Source: a virus. From it: a stretch of DNA of 64,000 nt. The stretch covers positions 1 through 64,000 of the IMG/VR virus record IMGVR_UViG_3300042296_000383. One strand, 5' to 3'. Below the pieces are notes generated by a model, which was given only the letters and a program-made list of their open reading frames with translations, searched no databases and had not been told where the DNA came from. This document shows positions 1-59,988 of this stretch, piece after piece; the stretch's first letter is position 1, and every line of letters begins with the position of its first letter. A program made the position numbers and the translations under genes.

Positions 1-18
1 TATTTAAAAGATTGTTAG

Positions 19-107
19 CCCCCTGTGCGGGATTCGAACCCGCATCCGCCGCGTACACGTCGATGCTTACCGTTCCCAGTATTTATTCCTGGTTACACCA
101 ACAGGGG
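19..107 (-). tRNA. tRNA-like RNA, anticodon not assignable
   Basis: Read on the minus strand, a 7-bp acceptor stem (101-107 with 20-26) closes the molecule. A canonical T arm lies at 27-43, with a 5-bp GCGGG/CCCGC stem and a TTCGAAT loop. A D-like arm GTGT...ATAC with a GG-containing loop can be drawn. No standard 5-bp anticodon stem with a 7-nt loop can be placed in the remaining 34 nt. These fold instead into TACTG-GGAA-CGGTA and a GCATC/GATGC helix. It could be a diverged type II tRNA or a tRNA mimic. Confidence 0.6.
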
Positions 108-151
108 AGACAAACATACAAACAAGATCAGTAACTCAAAACCAAAAATTG

Positions 152-1920: not shown

Positions 1921-1979
1921 GGCTAGCTGCATAGGGCAGCACGCAACGGCGTAAGGTGGTTCGAGTCCACCGCTAGCTA
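1921..1979 (+). ncRNA. minimal tRNA-like cloverleaf without anticodon loop
   Basis: A 59-nt element that can fold as a small cloverleaf. Acceptor stem 1921-1927 pairs with 1972-1978 (7 bp, one G-U). The D-like hairpin is 1928-1930 with 1936-1938. A CGC-AACG-GCG mini-hairpin at 1942-1951 takes the anticodon position. The T arm at 1955-1971 is perfect (GGTGG, loop TTCGAGT, CCACC). There is no 7-nt anticodon loop. A cut after A1979 would leave a 24-nt leader for the gene at 2004, closely matching the leaders left by the hammerhead ribozymes. It may therefore act as a processing signal. Confidence 0.5.
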
Positions 1980-2003
1980 CTAACCAATTTAAATTTCATT
2001 ATC

Positions 2004-2281: not shown

Positions 2282-2320
2282 AGCCCCGCCACGAGAGTGA
2301 GCGGGGCTTTGGCGGTATAA
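2282..2320 (+). terminator. intercistronic hairpin module M1
   Basis: AGCCCCGC (2282-2289) pairs with GCGGGGCT (2301-2308). An inner CAC/GTG stem is capped by GAGA with one bulged A. The downstream tail TTGGCGGTATAAC is shared with the other modules. Only three T residues follow the stem, so termination would be weak. GGCGG in the tail could pair with CCGCC in the 5' arm and compete with the hairpin. Confidence 0.6.
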
Positions 2321-2698: not shown

Positions 2699-2872
2699 AT
2701 GACAACTTACTTCATCTGCAACACCGACAGCTACGGGCAAAGAACGGGCACCTACAGCGCTATTCAACTGAGCGAAGGCGACGTGAATATAGACAGCTAC
2801 GGTAACAAGATACACGGCGGCAAATTTCTCTACGACAGCGAGCTAGAAATTGCGCGAGCGTGTCAAGATTAA
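2699..2872 (+). CDS. small early protein, unknown
   Basis: 57 aa. I chose the ATG at 2699, which follows the usual AT-rich leader, rather than an upstream frame extension that runs through hairpin M2. It is a short beta-prone protein (TTYFICNTDSYGQRTG...) ending ARACQD. No family recognised. The stop codon TAA (2870-2872) is the last three bases of the 5' strand of hammerhead stem I, so termination and ribozyme folding compete for the same bases. Confidence 0.7.
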   Translation: MTTYFICNTDSYGQRTGTYSAIQLSEGDVNIDSYGNKIHGGKFLYDSELEIARACQD

Positions 2873-2918
2873 CTGATGAGGCTTGAGTAGCCGAAACACC
2901 CTTCGGGGTGTCTTAATC
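2867..2918 (+). ncRNA. hammerhead ribozyme 1 (type I)
   Basis: Stem I is GATTAA (2867-2872) with TTAATC (2913-2918). The core CUGAUGA is at 2873-2879. Stem II is 2880-2883 with 2889-2892, loop UGAGU. GAAA is at 2893-2896. Stem III is 2897-2901 with 2906-2910, closed by a C(UUCG)G tetraloop. The cleavage site GUC lies at 2910-2912, with the cut after 2912. Every universally conserved core base is present. Stem I carries an A-U pair where the other three copies have G-C, which is direct covariation. Cleavage would leave a 23-nt leader for the gene at 2936. Confidence 0.93.
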
Positions 2919-2935
2919 AATAAATAATTTTCATC

Positions 2936-3316
2936 ATGAAAGTAGAACTAAACATTGGGCTTGGTAACAACCCCTTCGACGGCAGCGCAGCAGCGCTTTT
3001 AACCTTCAACGTGCTAACCAAGCACGGCGCCTCCAACACAGCCTTCAGACTATCGAAAGGCGAGTACGTGGGCAGCGGCGAAGATAACATTGTCGCAATC
3101 TTTGATTGGGACATCAACCACGACGGGCTATGGAAATTTAACAAGGTAGGATTTCAGACCCTCCTAGAAGCCCTAGCGACAATTATGACGCAGGAGTGCA
3201 TAGCCTTCTACGTGCAGGATTGGAACGACGGCGGGCTAACGTTTGCCCCCGAGTACGACGGCGAACGTTATGACTTCGATATTCAATACTTCGAACGTTG
3301 GGAGGCACAAGGTTAA
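2936..3316 (+). CDS. early protein of 126 aa, unknown
   Basis: 126 aa, with no recognised family. The N-terminal two thirds is beta-prone (VELNIGLGNNPFDGSAAALLTF, then a glycine-containing GEYVGSGEDNIVAIFDWDIN). The C terminus is acidic and aromatic and ends WEAQG. It is flanked on both sides by hammerhead ribozymes (2867-2918 and 3311-3360), so self-cleavage would release it as a single-gene mRNA. Its last two codons, GGT TAA, form the 5' strand of stem I of the second ribozyme. Confidence 0.75.
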   Translation: MKVELNIGLGNNPFDGSAAALLTFNVLTKHGASNTAFRLSKGEYVGSGEDNIVAIFDWDINHDGLWKFNKVGFQTLLEALATIMTQECIAFYVQDWNDGGLTFAPEYDGERYDFDIQYFERWEAQG

Positions 3317-3360
3317 CTGATGAGTCCTAAGTGGACGAAACGCCGCGAGGCGTCTTAACC
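3311..3360 (+). ncRNA. hammerhead ribozyme 2 (type I)
   Basis: Stem I is GGTTAA (3311-3316) with TTAACC (3355-3360). CUGAUGA is at 3317-3323. Stem II is 3324-3327 with 3333-3336, loop UAAGU. GAAA is at 3337-3340. Stem III is 3341-3344 with 3349-3352, capped by a GCGA tetraloop. The GUC cleavage site ends at 3354. Stems II and III differ from copy 1 in sequence but keep pairing. The predicted cut leaves a 19-nt leader for the gene at 3374. Confidence 0.93.
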
Positions 3361-3373
3361 AACACAATCTACA

Positions 3374-3559
3374 ATGACGAAGATTATCATTCTATTCTAC
3401 CTGTTCACCGGACAGGTTCAGCAGGTAGACGACCTGTACACCGTGCACACCGGCACCGGCACCTACGAGTATGCCTGCGAAGGCGAGGTGTTCAATTGGA
3501 TAGAGACGGGCACATTCAGCTACGACGACAGCCTGTGTAACTGCGGCGAAATCAACTAA
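3374..3559 (+). CDS. small early protein with Cys pair, unknown
   Basis: 61 aa. It starts with a hydrophobic segment (TKIIILFYLFTG) and continues as an acidic beta-prone chain rich in Tyr and Thr. A CNC motif lies near the C terminus (DDSLCNCGEIN). The hydrophobic start is short for a membrane anchor. No family recognised. It is the first of three genes between hammerheads 2 and 3, with leader UUAACCAACACAAUCUACA. Confidence 0.65.
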   Translation: MTKIIILFYLFTGQVQQVDDLYTVHTGTGTYEYACEGEVFNWIETGTFSYDDSLCNCGEIN

Positions 3560-3574
3560 AAAAACCATACAAAA

Positions 3575-3709
3575 ATGAAAACATTTGCTCTTATCGCGTC
3601 ACTAGCATGCATGGTGACAAGCGCAGTAATCGCTGACCTGTTCCTGTTCGGGATATCCGTAGTGTCAGTGTTCAGTTCAATTCTATTAACCTTTCAAAAG
3701 ACTAAGTAA
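3575..3709 (+). CDS. small membrane protein
   Basis: 44 aa. Almost the whole chain is hydrophobic: after MKTFALIASLACMVTSA comes a second segment, ADLFLFGISVVSVFSSILL, and a short basic tail FQKTK. It is predicted to be an inner-membrane peptide with one long or two short membrane segments. The stop codon ends one base before the next ATG at 3711. Small membrane proteins of phage early regions often act on the host envelope or on superinfection, but I see no specific evidence here. Confidence 0.6.
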   Translation: MKTFALIASLACMVTSAVIADLFLFGISVVSVFSSILLTFQKTK

Positions 3710-3710
3710 C

Positions 3711-3989
3711 ATGGACAAATTTGCAAGAATCGACACGGCGACAGGTCGCGGCATGAACGAGGGCTACTGCGTCAACGACGGCGTGGCTTACTTCGAAAAC
3801 GAGAGCGACCTTATCGCTTACCTACGCAACGAGTGCAACGTTGATGAGAACAACGAACTCAGCGACGAGTTCATCTTGAACGAGGCTTATAACGTCGAGA
3901 CCTACTACTACACCGAGTGGGACGCGGACGATGAGGACACCTACTACATAGAGGTCGAGGGCAAGTGGCTCGAGGTCCTGCAAGGTTAA
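3711..3989 (+). CDS. acidic early protein, unknown (possible DNA mimic)
   Basis: 92 aa, very rich in Asp and Glu, especially over residues 42-82 (VDENNELSDEFILNEAYN and TEWDADDEDTYYIEVEG). The composition would fit a small acidic inhibitor or DNA mimic of the kind phages make against host DNA-binding defences. This is inference from charge only. The final codons GGT TAA are the 5' strand of stem I of hammerhead 3. Confidence 0.72.
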   Translation: MDKFARIDTATGRGMNEGYCVNDGVAYFENESDLIAYLRNECNVDENNELSDEFILNEAYNVETYYYTEWDADDEDTYYIEVEGKWLEVLQG

Positions 3990-4042
3990 CTGATGAGGCT
4001 TAAATAGCCGAAACGTGAGGTTGTGCGCCTCACGTATTAACC
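3984..4042 (+). ncRNA. hammerhead ribozyme 3 (type I)
   Basis: Stem I is GGTTAA (3984-3989) with TTAACC (4037-4042). CUGAUGA is at 3990-3996. Stem II is 3997-4000 with 4006-4009, loop UAAAU. GAAA is at 4010-4013. Stem III has 7 bp (4014-4020 with 4028-4034) and a 7-nt loop. The cleavage triplet is GUA (4034-4036), an allowed NUH variant. Stem III is longer than in copies 1 and 2 and differs in sequence. The cut leaves a 20-nt leader for the gene at 4057. Confidence 0.92.
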
Positions 4043-4056
4043 AATATAATTCAATC

Positions 4057-4287
4057 ATGAATCAGCTAATTACAATCTACATTAACGGTTGTTGGGACGC
4101 GGACCATACGGACGCGACCGACACCTCACCTGTACGTATCTTCGAAAAGGGGACTGTTGTTCAAGTCATCGCAAGTCAGTACGACCAATACATTGAAGAC
4201 CTCGAGGAGAGGGGATATGACTGCTACCTCTGCCCCGACATGTACGCCAATCCTAAATGGAACGGTGAAATAATTTTCATAAACTAA
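4057..4287 (+). CDS. small early protein, unknown
   Basis: 76 aa. I chose the ATG at 4057, because an in-frame ATG at 4015 lies inside stem III of hammerhead 3. The protein begins MNQLITIYINGCWD and has a central KGTVVQVIASQYDQYIEDLEERGYD region. A CYLCPDMY segment near the C terminus could bind metal together with the earlier Cys. It resembles short regulatory-type alpha/beta proteins but belongs to no family I know. Confidence 0.72.
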   Translation: MNQLITIYINGCWDADHTDATDTSPVRIFEKGTVVQVIASQYDQYIEDLEERGYDCYLCPDMYANPKWNGEIIFIN

Positions 4288-4301
4288 TACCATAAATCAC
4301 A

Positions 4302-4430
4302 ATGAAAAAAGTTATCGCACTAGCAATCATCATCATCACGCTCGCGTCATGCAGCACCAAGAAACTTACCCACTCACACTACACCAAGGGGGTCACTAAC
4401 GGGCAGGACGGCTGCGCTTGGCACCGATAG
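4302..4430 (+). CDS. small putative lipoprotein
   Basis: 42 aa. It has a classical lipoprotein signal: MKK, a hydrophobic run VIALAIIIIT, then the lipobox LASC with the acylation Cys at residue 17. The short mature part is STKKLTHSHYTKGVTNGQDGC. It would be exported and lipidated at the inner or outer membrane. Candidate roles are superinfection exclusion or an envelope function. Small lipoproteins are also o-spanins, but this one is short and lies in the early region. Its TAG stop (4428-4430) overlaps the first base of hammerhead 4. Confidence 0.65.
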   Translation: MKKVIALAIIIITLASCSTKKLTHSHYTKGVTNGQDGCAWHR

Positions 4431-4487
4431 GTTAACTGATGAGGTCTGAGTGACCGAAACCTAGGGCACGCGCTCTAGGTCTTAACC
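4430..4487 (+). ncRNA. hammerhead ribozyme 4 (type I)
   Basis: Stem I is GGTTAA (4430-4435) with TTAACC (4482-4487). CUGAUGA is at 4436-4442. Stem II is 4443-4446 with 4452-4455, loop UGAGU. GAAA is at 4456-4459. Stem III has 8 bp including one G-U (4460-4467 with 4472-4479). The cleavage triplet GUC ends at 4481. Here the upstream gene stops with TAG just before stem I, yet GGTTAA is still kept. This shows that the ribozyme, not coding, conserves this sequence. The leader left for the gene at 4503 is 21 nt. Confidence 0.93.
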
Positions 4488-4502: not shown

Positions 4503-4877
4503 ATGAGTACAACAACACGCGCTATAGGACAGCGCAATTCATTCACACCGCAGGTAGAGCCTGCACCATTCAAAGTTAACCGCTTCGAGGTAGCTAGACT
4601 AGTGAAAGCACAAACCGACGCCGTGACGAGCGGCGTATGGGACTTCCCCATGGAGCACAAGTTCGACAACAGCGGCGATATATGGGACGCGGTCAACGCA
4701 GGCAAGAGCGTGCAGATGTTCGTGAGACAGTGCATGGTCGAGTTCGGCACCATCACGGGAGCCTTGCTCGGGAGTCAGTTCAACCACGTGTCCCACAGCA
4801 GCAAGCACGCCATCAGAAAGGGTGTGCTGAGAGCGCAGCAGTACAAGCAAATCATCGAACAACTAAAAGCAAAGTAA
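4503..4877 (+). CDS. early protein of 124 aa, unknown
   Basis: 124 aa. After a variable first 25 residues it looks mainly helical (FEVARLVKAQTDAVTSGVWD, then SVQMFVRQCMVEFGTITGALLG). It ends RAQQYKQIIEQLKAK, with a C-terminal LKAK as in the gene at 2004. No family recognised. It is the last gene behind a hammerhead; hairpin M3 follows. Confidence 0.72.
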   Translation: MSTTTRAIGQRNSFTPQVEPAPFKVNRFEVARLVKAQTDAVTSGVWDFPMEHKFDNSGDIWDAVNAGKSVQMFVRQCMVEFGTITGALLGSQFNHVSHSSKHAIRKGVLRAQQYKQIIEQLKAK

Positions 4878-4885
4878 TTATACCA

Positions 4886-4928
4886 AGCCCCGCCGCTCCC
4901 AAGCGTGCGGGGCTTTGGCGGTAGAAAC
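4886..4928 (+). terminator. intercistronic hairpin module M3
   Basis: AGCCCCGC (4886-4893) pairs with GCGGGGCT (4907-4914). The inner CGC (4894-4896) pairs with GCG (4903-4905), compared with CAC/GTG in M1 and M2. This is a compensatory change that supports the structure. A single bulged T and the tail TTGGCGGTAGAAAC are conserved. Confidence 0.62.
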
Positions 4929-4949
4929 AATTTAAAAAACAAACACAAT

Positions 4950-5324
4950 ATGGGACGTTCAGTAATGACGCTAAGCGGGGCGCAAATGACCGCATACATC
5001 GGAGGAAGCAAAGACTTCGAGTGGGACTATCTTATCGAGGAACTGCAGGAACTCGGGATGGAACTCGGGATGAACAAGTCTAGCAGATGGGAGGACAGGG
5101 AGGTTCTGATCTTGCTCGAAGGCAACGGAGCCGAGGTTGGAATCGCGGAGTACGGCGACGTGATATCTTTCGGCATACGAACCGAGATGGAGGATGACCC
5201 GAGCGCGGCACGCTGGATTGACAAGAACGGTCCCGACCTTGTGAAGCTATTCCATAGCTACGGCGACCCGATACGCAGCGTCGGCACATTCAGCAACGGA
5301 GAAACTGTTTACGAAAAAAAATAA
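4950..5324 (+). CDS. early protein of 124 aa, unknown
   Basis: 124 aa from the ATG at 4950, which follows the AT-rich leader; a more upstream in-frame ATG lies in the tail of hairpin M3. The N-terminal half has a helical region (DYLIEELQELGMELGMNKSSRWEDRE). Then come strands VLILLEG and DVISFGIR, and a C-terminal SVGTFSNGETVYEKK. It could be an alpha/beta anti-host protein. No family assigned. Confidence 0.72.
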   Translation: MGRSVMTLSGAQMTAYIGGSKDFEWDYLIEELQELGMELGMNKSSRWEDREVLILLEGNGAEVGIAEYGDVISFGIRTEMEDDPSAARWIDKNGPDLVKLFHSYGDPIRSVGTFSNGETVYEKK

Positions 5325-5328
5325 TACC

Positions 5329-5571
5329 ATGAACATTAACGTATTTATCACACCGAACAAGGTGTACGCAACGTACCGCAAAACAATCTGCCACAAAGAA
5401 GATTTCAATCCTAATGATTACGAGGCTAAGCAAGGGTCAATCACGCGGGCACAGTCAATAGCCTTCAGTCATGGGACTCAACACGGTTTATGCTTATTAA
5501 AACGAATTGAGATTGAGGAAGAATGGGGAGACGATGAATTGTTTAATTATCTAGAAACTAATATCCATTAA
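5329..5571 (+). CDS. small early protein, unknown
   Basis: 80 aa, starting four bases after the preceding stop. The N terminus is beta-prone (NINVFITPNKVYATY), the middle is mixed, and the C terminus is acidic (EIEEEWGDDELFNYLE). Its DNA is noticeably more AT-rich than the neighbouring genes, which may indicate recent acquisition. No family recognised. Confidence 0.65.
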   Translation: MNINVFITPNKVYATYRKTICHKEDFNPNDYEAKQGSITRAQSIAFSHGTQHGLCLLKRIEIEEEWGDDELFNYLETNIH

Positions 5572-5575
5572 CAAC

Positions 5576-5929
5576 ATGAGCGGAAAAAAGTTTTACAACA
5601 GCGGCAGGATTGCCAACGTGTTCAGTCATCAGGACAGGCAGCGCCTGCTACACCACCACTCGATGACCTACAAGATTTTTATGGAGCTAAGCGAGACAGG
5701 CTACTGGATGAAGCCTTCACTTATCGCAGAGTTCGAGGCGTGGAGCGACGAGGTCGAGATACGCATGGGCAAGAAGCCCGACAGCGACTACAGCTACAAG
5801 GTGCTAGAGAACTGCGCGGACTACGGACCGCTCACGCTGGCGGAATACTTCGAGGGCTGCGCTAGGCACACGCGAGCGCTGTGCGAGAGCCTTGGGGCGG
5901 AGTACAACGACCACCTCCCGAAGATTTAA
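5576..5929 (+). CDS. early protein of 117 aa, unknown
   Basis: 117 aa and mainly helical by eye. There are several His residues near the N terminus (SHQDRQRLLHHHSMTYK) and a Cys/His pair in EGCARHTRALCES. The starting ATG is four bases after the upstream stop, consistent with translation from a common mRNA. No motif identifies a family. Hairpin M4 follows. Confidence 0.68.
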   Translation: MSGKKFYNSGRIANVFSHQDRQRLLHHHSMTYKIFMELSETGYWMKPSLIAEFEAWSDEVEIRMGKKPDSDYSYKVLENCADYGPLTLAEYFEGCARHTRALCESLGAEYNDHLPKI

Positions 5930-5945
5930 TTTATTTGGTTACGCC

Positions 5946-5989
5946 ACCGCCTTCGCTGAGAAATCAGCGGGGGTTTTGGCGGTATAAAC
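5946..5989 (+). terminator. intercistronic hairpin module M4
   Basis: The inner stem CGCTGA (5954-5959)/TCAGCG (5964-5969) is closed by a GAAA tetraloop. An outer stem ACCGCC (5946-5951)/GGCGGT (5978-5983) encloses it with an asymmetric internal loop that includes TTTT. The tail GCGGTATAAAC is shared with M1, M3 and M5. The outer pairing shows that GGCGGT can base-pair with an upstream CCGCC, a possibility also present in M1 and M3. Confidence 0.58.
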
Positions 5990-5999
5990 AAACACAGAC

Positions 6000-6497
6000 A
6001 TGAAAGAAATAAAAGCAAGCGACCTCAAGGTCGGCGTCGTGTATCACGACACACCGAATGAAAACAAGATAGCGTTCGTCTTTGTAAAGAGAACAGAGGA
6101 CGCGCTGTGGTTTGTCCCACTATCCCCTTTAGATGCTCTCAAGGCGGCGCTGTACCAGACAGACGAGAGCGGCATGATTTCGTTTGTGGATTTAGACATC
6201 TCTAAATGGTACTATGACGAGGAGCGATGCAGCCCCGACAGGATGCCCAACGGACTGAATGACTGGGCAGAGATTCACCATGAAATTGTCAGCGTAATTA
6301 CAGAAACGCTTGAACGTCCAGAGAGTGAGTGGGGGGACAACCTGAGATGGTATATAGACCAGAGCGGAACAGGCGGGATGTACGAGCTAGGTATTGACCT
6401 CACTTGGGCGTTCGCTTACATGCACCAAGACACCGTGTGGGGGGAAGACTTGGACTGGTCCGATACCCTAGAGGAGTTTATTAACTCAAGCCTTTAA
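6000..6497 (+). CDS. early protein of 165 aa, unknown
   Basis: 165 aa, one of the longer early proteins, beginning MKEIKASDLKVGVVY. The N terminus has a small beta-barrel look (VYHDTPNENKIAFVFVKRTEDALWFV). The C-terminal half is acidic and tryptophan-rich (SEWGDNLRWYIDQSG, DTVWGEDLDWSDTLEEF). A KOW-like or Tudor-like fold is conceivable for the first 60 residues but is not demonstrable by eye. Confidence 0.7.
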   Translation: MKEIKASDLKVGVVYHDTPNENKIAFVFVKRTEDALWFVPLSPLDALKAALYQTDESGMISFVDLDISKWYYDEERCSPDRMPNGLNDWAEIHHEIVSVITETLERPESEWGDNLRWYIDQSGTGGMYELGIDLTWAFAYMHQDTVWGEDLDWSDTLEEFINSSL

Positions 6498-6510
6498 CAT
6501 TCAGTGACGA

Positions 6511-6550
6511 CCTCGCCCGCATCCACGGGCGGGGTTTTCGCGGTATAAAC
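6511..6550 (+). terminator. intercistronic hairpin module M5
   Basis: CCTCGCCCG (6511-6519) pairs with CGGGCGGGG (6526-6534), 9 bp with one U-G, followed by TTTT and the shared tail CGCGGTATAAAC. It is the most terminator-like of the five modules because of its four T residues. Genes continue on the same strand, so any termination must be partial. Confidence 0.58.
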
Positions 6551-6560
6551 AAATACAAAC

Positions 6561-6890
6561 ATGAAAAGATACTTCACGTACCAGAAACAGCGCATGACAT
6601 TCGAGAGCGCCATGACCCACGTCATAATCGAGGAGACCAACAATCAGACTCAGTCACTGAAGCTAAGGAAGGGGGTGCACCTCTCGGACTGGATGATGAC
6701 CAAGGAAGAAGGCGAGGCGAGGCTTCAAGAGATTGCCAAGTACGACTGCGACGGCGCCACCATAGTAGACGGAGCCGTGTCCAACGAGGGCAGCAGATAC
6801 CAACTGCACAGCATCGAGAATCTGAGCGAGATTGAATTGCTTAAAATGTCGCGCGTGCTACCACTAACATTTAAAGTATACCAGCCATGA
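6561..6890 (+). CDS. early protein of 109 aa, unknown
   Basis: 109 aa. It begins with a basic aromatic stretch (MKRYFTYQKQRMTFES) and has a helical middle (DWMMTKEEGEARLQEIAKYDCDG). It ends in a hydrophobic strand LPLTFKVYQP. The stop overlaps the next start by four bases (ATGA), so translation is likely coupled to the gene at 6887. No family recognised. Confidence 0.7.
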   Translation: MKRYFTYQKQRMTFESAMTHVIIEETNNQTQSLKLRKGVHLSDWMMTKEEGEARLQEIAKYDCDGATIVDGAVSNEGSRYQLHSIENLSEIELLKMSRVLPLTFKVYQP

Positions 6891-19122: not shown

Positions 19123-21588
19123 TTATATTGGACACTGGTCGTTTTTAGACGCCAGCCCTTTGTCTTCTAATTGTTTGTAAATGTACGACATATTATCAAT
19201 TATATATTTAGCGGACGGGCTGTCTGCTAATATATTTTTCAGGTCCTCGTTAGCCTTACGCTTCTTTGCTCCCCCTTCTGCCGCCTTCATCTTGTTGTAC
19301 CCCTTCTCGTACTGCTTGAACTTATCCTCCACGAGGGATTGTTGTCCTGCTTTATCATTGTTTTTGACATAGGCTTCTGCTTGTTTTTTTGACATATAAG
19401 CATAGTCTGCACCAGCATCTTCGTTCCACTCAGATTCAAACCCAAAATTATTTGTTAAATTATTTAAAAGATTTTTATTTGTAACTTCTAACCTGATTTG
19501 TTCCAAATCACTCTTAACAAAATCTCTAATCATACCGTCTATCAACTTCTTAGATAGTCCTTTATTTCTTTCGGATTTGTCTACTGCCATATCTGCCTTG
19601 TATTCAAAATCACTATCTTCCAAAGTTAAAGCAGCAACAACTTTTCCTTTTTCAACTATAACCAATCTTGGTTCCCCATAGGTAATTACGTTAGAAGAAA
19701 CTAAATCTTTTGCTTCTTTGTAGTATTGCGATTTTTTATCTATGATCTCCACGTCTACCTTATCGGGTATAATCTGGCTAGCATCCTGCGTATCTGTACC
19801 CGCTTGGGTACCTTTCAGCATGCCCTCAATATCGGGTAGCTTACCCATAGAGAGATCCTCTGCAATAGAGGCAAGCTGCTCGGGCGTGAAGTTGATAGGG
19901 TTCTTACCGTCCGATCCCGTCTTTATATTCTCATAAGAGTCGAGATCAAATAAAGACTCCTGGCCTGCAAGCTTACCGAACTCTAGCGCCACGTCGCGGT
20001 GCTCTCTCGGGATCACGATGTTCAGATCGTATGACACCTCTGGGCGGTCCGGGAATTTGTATAGCCCTATCTTGAAGATGTCGCTGGAGATGTTGCCCTC
20101 GTTTTGTTTTAAGAAATCATACAGCCCCTCTGCGGTAACCTGTCCCTGTCCAACGTTCACCGAGGTGGCCGGGACAACAAGCCCACCATCCTCGTACACT
20201 GTACCGTCAAGGTTGAGCGTCGCACCGTCCTCACTAGTCGCCGCCTTGATCTTATCAATTGTCTCGGCAACGTTGCCAGAGAACTGCTCTGGACTTGCGG
20301 ACACACGGCTCTTTGTTTTTATACCTGCTTTAATAAATGGCACTTGCCCGTGACCAGCCTTACCTAATGCAGATCTCTCTTCCATCTCTGATAGAGGTGT
20401 GCCTTTAGAGTCTGTCATAAAATCTAAAAAGTTCAGCCTGTCCTTAAGCATGTGTACTTTAACCCGCTGACCATCCTGTGTTTTCATAACGCCAGCGTAA
20501 GCAATGTGACGCCTTTCGCTAGGATCTTTAGACGACTCATCTTCTAGTTTTAACTTAGAAGGAATTTCAATAACCGCGTAAGCAGATTGAGACGGCACTT
20601 CAGAAATGAAACCCTCTTCTTGATTCTTACCAAAGCTGTCTATTATATCCTCTTTATTTTTAAGAGGGAATCCCAATTTATTACCTAACGATTCAAAGTT
20701 TATAAGATTTCCGTTTGATTTTTTATCAAATATATTCCTTATCAAGTTTGTAACAACTTGCTTTCTCTTTTCAAAAGATGAAAACTCAGCTTTCATGAAC
20801 AAATCTTTAATCGATTTGTGCATATCTTTTCCGCTGATGTTCATTGGAAATAAATCCTTACCAGTGTATCCACTTGTTTTAACAGCGCTTGACATCGCGT
20901 TCCTAAAAACGGATAACGGAATATCCCCGTCTTCCACCATGTAAGCTATTGTGTCTACAGTTGCAATCATTCCATCAACACTGCTGAGAACCTTCCTGTT
21001 AGACCCCTTGCTAACAACCACATACGCAGGAGATCCGTTCTTATCGATGGCATCATTTATTTGTTTGATTATACTTCTGGCAATTTGAGGGGTGGATGCC
21101 CAAAAAGTACCGTCGTCATTAAATTTAACAGCGAAGTATATTCCGCCATTACCCTGAAGCACAACTCTGTCCTTGCTTTCTTTTGGCTGTTTAGTTTTCT
21201 CGTCGTAAACTATTTCTTTACCATAGGATAAATCGCCTACCATTTTATTGTCGGGAACCATCGTAAAAACATTATCAGACCCAGCAAATGAAAACACATC
21301 AGCGTTATCTACAATGTAACCCTCTTCCCTTAACTTATCTAACTTAGTTTTACCTTGCTCATCGGTTAGATCAGCAAATAAGTTTACATTAAACTTACCG
21401 CCTACAGAGGATTTTGCTTTAAAAGTTTTTACAGTATTAACTACCTCCCTTCCTTCCTGCGCCTCAACCTTTGGAGTTTGGTCATACTCGGCAAGTATAT
21501 TCCTGTACTCACCGCCCGCAAGCAAGGCCATGAACTCTTCTTTAGTGTAGGTCTTGTTGTTGTATATGTACTTACATCCCTTCGGCAT
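19123..21588 (-). CDS. large polyvalent protein with GNAT domain
   Basis: 821 aa. The N terminus (GCKYIYNNKTYTKEEFMALLAGGEY) resembles that of the 1415-aa protein. Residues about 615-740 read as a GNAT acetyltransferase: a VIVEKGKVVAALTLED strand, then DMAVDKSERNKGLSKKLIDGMIRDF with the R/Q-x-x-G-x-G/S acetyl-CoA loop in altered form, then EVTNKNLLNNLTNNFGFE. The corresponding DNA is markedly AT-rich compared with its flanks, as is residues 56-383, suggesting domain shuffling. It is probably injected with the genome. The acetylation target is unknown. Confidence 0.66.
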   Translation of the reverse strand: MPKGCKYIYNNKTYTKEEFMALLAGGEYRNILAEYDQTPKVEAQEGREVVNTVKTFKAKSSVGGKFNVNLFADLTDEQGKTKLDKLREEGYIVDNADVFSFAGSDNVFTMVPDNKMVGDLSYGKEIVYDEKTKQPKESKDRVVLQGNGGIYFAVKFNDDGTFWASTPQIARSIIKQINDAIDKNGSPAYVVVSKGSNRKVLSSVDGMIATVDTIAYMVEDGDIPLSVFRNAMSSAVKTSGYTGKDLFPMNISGKDMHKSIKDLFMKAEFSSFEKRKQVVTNLIRNIFDKKSNGNLINFESLGNKLGFPLKNKEDIIDSFGKNQEEGFISEVPSQSAYAVIEIPSKLKLEDESSKDPSERRHIAYAGVMKTQDGQRVKVHMLKDRLNFLDFMTDSKGTPLSEMEERSALGKAGHGQVPFIKAGIKTKSRVSASPEQFSGNVAETIDKIKAATSEDGATLNLDGTVYEDGGLVVPATSVNVGQGQVTAEGLYDFLKQNEGNISSDIFKIGLYKFPDRPEVSYDLNIVIPREHRDVALEFGKLAGQESLFDLDSYENIKTGSDGKNPINFTPEQLASIAEDLSMGKLPDIEGMLKGTQAGTDTQDASQIIPDKVDVEIIDKKSQYYKEAKDLVSSNVITYGEPRLVIVEKGKVVAALTLEDSDFEYKADMAVDKSERNKGLSKKLIDGMIRDFVKSDLEQIRLEVTNKNLLNNLTNNFGFESEWNEDAGADYAYMSKKQAEAYVKNNDKAGQQSLVEDKFKQYEKGYNKMKAAEGGAKKRKANEDLKNILADSPSAKYIIDNMSYIYKQLEDKGLASKNDQCPI

Positions 21589-59886: not shown

Positions 59887-59988
59887 TAATCAGGACAGGA
59901 TTCGAACCTGTACGGTATCTTTTGGATTTACATCAGCTTTAGGCTGGAATGCGAATACCACCTGCGTCTACCATTCCGCCACCTGACT
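59887..59988 (-). tRNA. tRNA-like RNA, Leu-type D arm, abnormal anticodon arm
   Basis: Read on the minus strand, acceptor AGTCAGG/CCTGATT (59982-59988 with 59888-59894), a leucine-type D arm (GGCGGAATGGTAGACGC) and a 5-bp T arm with loop TTCGAAT (59895-59911) are all present. Where the anticodon arm should be, an elongated helix occurs: CAGC-CTAAA-GCTG inside a weaker outer stem. No 7-nt loop with U33 is placed. It may be a tRNA with an intron-like insertion, or a mimic. At about 101 nt it is longer than a normal type II tRNA. Confidence 0.65.

What the first reader, a model, noticed from the sequence alone, without database searches (positions are those of the whole stretch)
2867..4487. Four hammerhead ribozymes at gene junctions of a phage early operon
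Seen in sequence: four type I hammerheads at 2867-2918, 3311-3360, 3984-4042 and 4430-4487. Each has CUGAUGA, a 4-bp stem II with a pentaloop, GAAA, a stem III and a GUC/GUA site. Stems II and III differ in sequence yet pair, and stem I shows G-C to A-U covariation in copy 1. Known: hammerheads occur in phages, usually as single copies. Inference: a cluster that cuts one polycistronic mRNA into defined units is unusual and may be undescribed.
Basis: partly seen in the sequence, partly recalled or inferred. Interest (0 to 1): 0.93.

Follow-up and report, generated by a model that had tools for sequence, protein, structure and literature searches.

The report
Self-cutting ribozymes at phage gene junctions
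Four small RNA elements that look able to cut themselves sit exactly between genes of this bacterial virus; clusters like this were first described in 2011, but these belong to a large, uniform family that standard annotation misses, with a single-copy counterpart built into a gene pair of some marine-type bacteria.

Summary
Four type I hammerheads lie at 2867-2918, 3311-3360, 3984-4042 and 4430-4487 (+). Each folds as drawn. All score 63-74 bits (E 1e-14 to 6e-12) with a model built without them or their near relatives. None reaches Rfam's cut-off; the best is 29.5 against 34. The claim that clusters are probably undescribed is wrong: Perreault et al. 2011 reported clustered hammerheads flanking phage genes, proposed this processing role and showed cleavage of tandem arrays.

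New here: a uniform family in more than 100 viral contigs (Bacteroidota hosts where known), up to 8 copies per record. The upstream stop codon lies within 15 nt of, or inside, the ribozyme in 169/176 copies; the next ATG is 21-26 nt after the cut (interquartile range). A single chromosomal copy with the same geometry sits between a TonB-dependent receptor gene and a small Cys/His-rich lipoprotein gene in 24 of 296 Flavobacteriales genomes; more distant homologous operons lack it.

Best explanation: co-transcriptional cutting of polycistronic mRNA between stop and start codon, giving separately translated and separately decaying units. Cleavage itself is untested. Verdict: new variant of a known kind.

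The parts
2867..2918 (+). hammerhead copy 1 (type I), GUC, predicted cut after 2912; stem I GAUUAA/UUAAUC
   Evidence: R2 73.9 bits
3311..3360 (+). hammerhead copy 2 (type I), GUC, predicted cut after 3354
   Evidence: RF00163 29.5 bits; R2 71.6 bits
3984..4042 (+). hammerhead copy 3 (type I), GUA, predicted cut after 4036
   Evidence: R2 65.1 bits
4430..4487 (+). hammerhead copy 4 (type I), GUC, predicted cut after 4481
   Evidence: R2 62.8 bits
2699..2872 (+). ORF upstream of copy 1; its TAA stop is the last three bases of the stem I 5' strand
   Evidence: homologues in L087 and L047 also end at a hammerhead, followed by a different gene
2936..3316 (+). ORF between copies 1 and 2; stop TAA inside stem I of copy 2; start 23 nt after cut 1
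   Evidence: homologues in L100, L053, L074 and Flavobacterium phage elemoB also end at a hammerhead
3374..3559 (+). first ORF of the 3355-4036 unit; start 19 nt after cut 2
3575..3709 (+). ORF inside the 3355-4036 unit
   Evidence: homologues in L100, L087
3711..3989 (+). ORF upstream of copy 3; stop TAA inside stem I
   Evidence: homologues in L100, L035/L087 and L074 also followed by a hammerhead
4057..4287 (+). ORF; start 20 nt after cut 3
4302..4430 (+). ORF upstream of copy 4; TAG stop overlaps the first base of stem I
   Evidence: homologues in L100, L087, L047 also followed by a hammerhead
4503..4877 (+). ORF downstream of copy 4; start 21 nt after cut 4
2919..2935 (+). A/U-rich leader between stem I of copy 1 and the next ATG; resembles leaders at junctions that lack a hammerhead
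   Evidence: direct repeat families D3, D6, D10

Best explanation
The four elements are functional type I hammerhead ribozymes that act in cis while the operon is transcribed. Each cuts the mRNA between the stop codon of one gene and the start codon of the next. The upstream piece keeps its stop codon and ends just after the stem III hairpin, presumably with a 2',3'-cyclic phosphate. The downstream piece starts with a 5'-OH and a short A/U-rich leader of about 19-23 nt. The operon RNA is thereby split into units of one to three genes with new, structured or chemically protected ends, so that neighbouring genes can be translated and degraded at different rates. Shown here: structure, covariation, core conservation including the cut position, placement, strand consistency, and a conserved chromosomal counterpart. 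Inferred: that cleavage happens in the cell, the end chemistry, and the effect on stability or translation.
For: (1) Independent model R2 gives 63-74 bits; the hammerhead is the lowest-energy fold of all four. (2) Leave-one-out core test on 156 family members: every catalytic core position keeps the consensus (2 exceptions at U4); N7 varies as expected; H17, which the retrieval pattern left free, is C 132, A 24, G 0, U 0, as the NUH rule requires. (3) Unselected test: 221 core-only matches in the loci, 169 with all three stems; 0 complete in five shuffles. (4) On 47 members 13 of 15 pairs show two-sided changes. (5) Upstream stop codon within 15 nt of, or inside, the ribozyme in 169/176; next ATG 21-26 nt (IQR) after the cut. 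The same holds for 53 copies that the retrieval pattern did not select: 49/51 stops, 46/52 leaders. (6) In 50/50 full records all copies are on one strand, reversed-pattern controls 0, up to 8 copies. (7) One chromosomal hammerhead with the same geometry between a TonB-dependent receptor gene and a lipoprotein gene in 24 Flavobacteriales genomes, with covariation. (8) Prior work: prophage hammerhead arrays do cut in vitro and in E. coli (PMC3088659).
Against: No RNA data: cleavage, ends and half-lives are untested for this family. Stem I is open and short (6 bp) and no tertiary partner for loop II is proven, so the rate at cellular Mg2+ is unknown. Other junctions of the same operon have no hammerhead but a GC-rich hairpin, so cutting is not needed at every junction. 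The small unknown genes give no clue why these junctions are cut.
Confidence: 0.72

Rival explanations
1. Translation-coupled switch. A ribosome terminating at the stop codon in or just before stem I masks the ribozyme, so cutting depends on how heavily the upstream gene is translated, and cleavage reports or enforces translation status.
For: 122 of 176 stops lie in -8..+12 of the core, 58 of them TAA inside stem I and 32 the UGA of CUGAUGA.
Against: UUAACUGAUGA offers stops in two frames, so overlap may only reflect compact packing. In the chromosomal family the stop lies 8-16 nt before the core (3 cases about -42), not inside it, so overlap is not required.
Confidence: 0.15
2. Excision and circularisation (or splicing). 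The RNA between two cuts begins with UUAACC and carries the next copy's GGUUAA, so the second ribozyme could ligate the ends into circular mRNA, as in viroid-like RNAs and retrozymes.
For: Copies within a phage often share stem I: 57 of 80 consecutive pairs can cross-pair fully against 51% of random pairs. Copies 2-4 of the window are compatible.
Against: 29% of consecutive pairs cannot cross-pair although each copy pairs with itself; the excess may be shared ancestry. Perreault et al. looked for spliced or circular products and found none. The chromosomal copies are single.
Confidence: 0.05
3. Hairpin-only role. The elements serve as RNA structures (3'-end protection, attenuation) and catalysis is incidental.
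For: Other junctions of this operon carry GC-rich hairpins of another kind.
Against: Unpaired catalytic bases and H17 are kept while stem sequences drift; a plain hairpin needs none of them.
Confidence: 0.05
4. Selfish or leftover sequence: copies spread with the phage mosaic and have no benefit for expression.
For: Hammerhead junctions join many different gene pairs: 50 pairs share only the upstream gene, 31 only the downstream gene, 14 both.
Against: Exact placement between stop and start, core conservation, one strand only, and conservation in a chromosomal operon.
Confidence: 0.08

Closest known systems
Clustered hammerheads of prophages (Perreault et al. 2011, PMC3088659)
   Same: Several hammerheads close together flanking single genes or short gene blocks; proposed processing of long phage transcripts; tandem arrays shown to cut in vitro and one in E. 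coli.
   Different: The main text of that paper does not mention Bacteroidota or stop codons. The family here is uniform (type I, 6-bp stem I, UNANU loop II) and below Rfam thresholds.
Rfam RF00163 Hammerhead_1 (type I)
   Same: Type I topology and the same core; closest Rfam model for copy 2 (29.5 bits).
   Different: Below the 34-bit cut-off. 0 matches in 15 phage loci and 0 in 20 chromosomal loci at gathering.
Rfam RF03152 RAGATH-1-hammerhead and RF02275 Hammerhead_HH9
   Same: Same core; weak matches to copies 1, 2 and 4.
   Different: Scores 16-22 against cut-offs of 52-56; the extra 5' hairpin of RAGATH-1 is not supported here.
Retrozymes and viroid-like RNAs with hammerheads
   Same: The same chemistry; two ribozymes flank a unit.
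   Different: Coding mRNA units of a DNA phage; no evidence of circles.

Membership tests
Hammerhead ribozyme, type I (structural class) | Core C3 U4 G5 A6 N7 G8 A9 / G12 A13 A14 / A15.1-U16.1 | tested here: met
   All four copies; 156 family members with practically no exception
Hammerhead ribozyme, type I (structural class) | H17 at the cleavage site (not G) | tested here: met
   C, C, A, C in the window; C 132, A 24, G 0 in the family with this position left free
Hammerhead ribozyme, type I (structural class) | Three stems around the core, stem I open | tested here: met
   Folds; two-sided changes in 13 of 15 pairs; unselected core-only test with shuffle control
Hammerhead ribozyme, type I (structural class) | Stem I-stem II tertiary contact (needed for fast cutting) | tested here: inconclusive
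   Loop II UNANU and A flanking stem I on both sides are conserved. Stem I of 7+ bp goes with stem II of 5+ bp (16 of 19) and 6 with 4 (144 of 156), but relatedness is not corrected and no contact is proven
Hammerhead ribozyme, type I (structural class) | Self-cleavage | not testable with these tools
   needs RNA
Rfam RF00163 as curated | Score of at least 34 bits | tested here: not met
   Best copy 29.5 bits. This is a search cut-off, not a biological trait of hammerheads
Phage clustered hammerheads (Perreault 2011) | Several copies flanking genes of a (pro)phage, same strand as the genes | tested here: met
   Window is a virus record with terminase, portal and Erf; copies at gene junctions of one + strand gene run

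The most novel reading that the evidence does not exclude
Intercistronic hammerheads are a regular gene-expression device of Bacteroidota and their phages. Co-transcriptional self-cutting at a fixed place between stop and start codon splits operons, is kept by selection in a host chromosomal receptor-lipoprotein operon, and was missed because Rfam's thresholds exclude the family.
Probability: 0.5. Interest if true: 0.82.

Novelty: new variant of a known kind. Interest (0 to 1): 0.62.

Why it matters
What hammerheads do in bacteria and phages is an open question (PMC6155905, 2017; PMC10085705, 2023, calls the gene associations of these ribozymes unexplained). This family fixes their position relative to stop and start codons in more than 100 phage contigs. 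It also offers a simple chromosomal case, one ribozyme in one two-gene operon, with homologous operons lacking it as natural controls, and a cultured phage (Flavobacterium phage elemoB) that carries a copy. Together these make the processing hypothesis directly testable. It also shows that standard RNA annotation overlooks the family: 0 matches in 35 loci that carry it.

Tried and rejected
Chance: rejected by the shuffle controls. Rfam at gathering: no call in the window, which turned out to be low sensitivity, not absence. Near relatives in INPHARED by megablast: none; a distant search gave one weak isolate match that proved a real hammerhead. Type II hammerheads in the loci: none. Circularisation through shared stem I: tested, not supported as a general rule. 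'The ribozyme travels with its upstream gene': only a mild excess (50 against 31), not claimed. Promoter and terminator scans of the operon: about what chance gives. PDB sequence search for terminase and a head protein: nothing. PHROGs for the flanking genes: no function. The 99.7% pairing is inflated because rows were chosen by a descriptor that asks for stems; the unselected test is the fair one.

Full report
WHAT IS THERE. The window is nearly all of a 64,659-base virus record with terminase, portal and Erf-like genes. A run of small + strand genes occupies about 2.0-12.6 kb. The predicted cut sites (after 2912, 3354, 4036, 4481) follow from the sequence. The lowest-energy fold of each is the hammerhead.

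IS IT REAL. The core pattern occurs 4 times where 0.12 are expected. Rfam at gathering finds none; at a relaxed threshold copy 2 matches RF00163 with 29.5 bits (cut-off 34), the rest weakly. I therefore built a model (R2) from 36 elements of other phages, without the window and its near relatives; it gives the four copies 73.9, 71.6, 65.1 and 62.8 bits, E 1.3e-14 to 5.7e-12 in 158 kb. Rfam's gathering cut-offs also find nothing in 15 phage loci that together hold dozens of these elements.

THE FAMILY. In these loci and a few others I find 191 distinct hammerheads in 111 records. In 50 full records every copy lies on one strand, the reversed control pattern never matches, and one record (G002) has 8 copies within 3.8 kb. 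Named hosts or carriers are Mucilaginibacter, Aquimarina, a Bacteroidia MAG and Flavobacterium phage elemoB, a cultured phage. Contigs binned as Aliivibrio, Burkholderiales and Streptomycetaceae MAGs also match and may be misbinned phage (inference). Shared traits: stem I 6 bp (150 of 170), stem II 4 bp with loop UNANU, A next to stem I on both sides, stem III free in length and sequence.

CONSTRAINT. Without asking for stems, 221 core matches occur, 169 with all three stems; five shuffles give 86 core matches and no complete one. On a 47-member alignment 13 of 15 pairs show two-sided changes (rows pre-selected, so the pairing percentage itself is not evidence). With each core position set free in turn, 156 members keep the consensus almost without exception. 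H17, free in the retrieval pattern, is C or A, never G or U. For pattern-matching copies the other core positions were fixed by retrieval, so H17 and the 53 non-pattern copies are the unbiased part.

PLACEMENT. The upstream gene's stop lies from 15 nt before the core to 12 nt inside it in 169 of 176 cases (58 are the TAA inside stem I, 32 the UGA of CUGAUGA). The next ATG is a median of 23 nt after the cut (IQR 21-26, n=184). The 53 non-pattern copies behave alike. In the window three stops are the TAA in stem I and the fourth a TAG overlapping its first base; leaders are 19-23 nt. Cutting therefore does not damage a reading frame. The A/U-rich leaders resemble those at junctions without a hammerhead, so junctions look modular: gene, ribozyme or hairpin, leader, gene. 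Homologous genes keep a hammerhead behind them while the next gene differs, e.g. the gene at 2936-3316 in L100, L053, L074 and elemoB.

AN UNEXPECTED HOST COUNTERPART. The phage model matched 26 of 296 Flavobacteriales genomes, 25 of them small (1-2 Mb) with exactly one copy. In the 24 that could be read in detail it lies between a TonB-dependent receptor gene (Plug domain) and a small Cys/His-rich lipoprotein gene. The stop is 8-16 nt before the core in 21 and about 42 nt in three; the ATG is 22-27 nt after the cut in 23 of the 24. The stems covary (10 of 15 pairs two-sided) and stem I differs from the phage type (AAUACU/AGUAUU). Homologous but more distant operons (receptor 38-60% identical) have no hammerhead core; where both gene ends were resolved the genes are mostly 6-14 nt apart (two are 58-59 nt). 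One further genome, 69% identical, has it. It is confined to part of the order: 20 of 52 genomes of one family, and in 395 Bacteroidia genomes only the Aquimarina copy. No paper in the library holds both 'hammerhead ribozyme' and 'TonB-dependent receptor'; the library covers open-access papers only.

MECHANISM. The simplest account is co-transcriptional intercistronic cutting. Shown: fold, covariation, core, position, strand, conservation. Inferred: activity in the cell, 2',3'-cyclic phosphate and 5'-OH ends (established hammerhead chemistry), different decay or translation of the pieces. Rivals (translation-coupled switch, circularisation, hairpin-only role, neutral cargo) are weighed in their field; circularisation was tested and is not generally possible.

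NOVELTY. Clustered phage hammerheads and the processing idea date from 2011 (PMC3088659) and were restated in 2017 (PMC6155905); in 2023 the reason for the gene associations was still called unknown (PMC10085705). New here, as far as the searchable literature goes: the uniform family below Rfam cut-offs, its fixed stop/start geometry, and the chromosomal operon member. Hence new variant of a known kind.

Noticed in passing
L136-L160 (Flavobacteriales genomes), e.g. L137:2062-2117 (-): Single chromosomal type I hammerhead between a TonB-dependent receptor gene and a small Cys/His-rich lipoprotein gene in 24 of 296 genomes, missed by Rfam; most more distant homologous operons have a 6-14 nt gap instead.
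   Followed up: yes
L131 near 19053 (-), L082, L116, L047, L036: Type III hammerhead candidates whose cut lies 60-66 nt upstream of an ATG, in the leader of a gene, in phages that also carry type I junction copies; includes cultured Flavobacterium phage elemoB.
   Followed up: partly
window 2283-2318, 2638-2673, 4885-4920, 5945-5982, 6508-6548: Five GC-rich hairpins followed by TTT(T)NGCRGTA at other junctions of the same operon, relatives in L035, L087 and L100; terminator-like or another structured RNA; no Rfam family for the three in 4700-6700.
   Followed up: partly
window 16-108 (-) and 1921-1980 (+): tRNA-like ends (TTCGAATCC and TTCGAGTCC T-arms with acceptor-like stems); ARAGORN calls nothing and Rfam gives only a weak tmRNA match at 26-63.
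   Followed up: partly
window 59887-59988 (-): tRNA found by Rfam (36.5 bits) but not by ARAGORN; the match includes a long unmodelled insertion.
   Followed up: no
window 19123-21588 (-): Large protein in the structural gene cluster with a GNAT acetyltransferase-like domain near its C-terminus.
   Followed up: no
family alignment, stem I and stem II: Stem I of 7+ bp goes with stem II of 5+ bp, and 6 with 4; may reflect tertiary docking or shared ancestry.
   Followed up: partly
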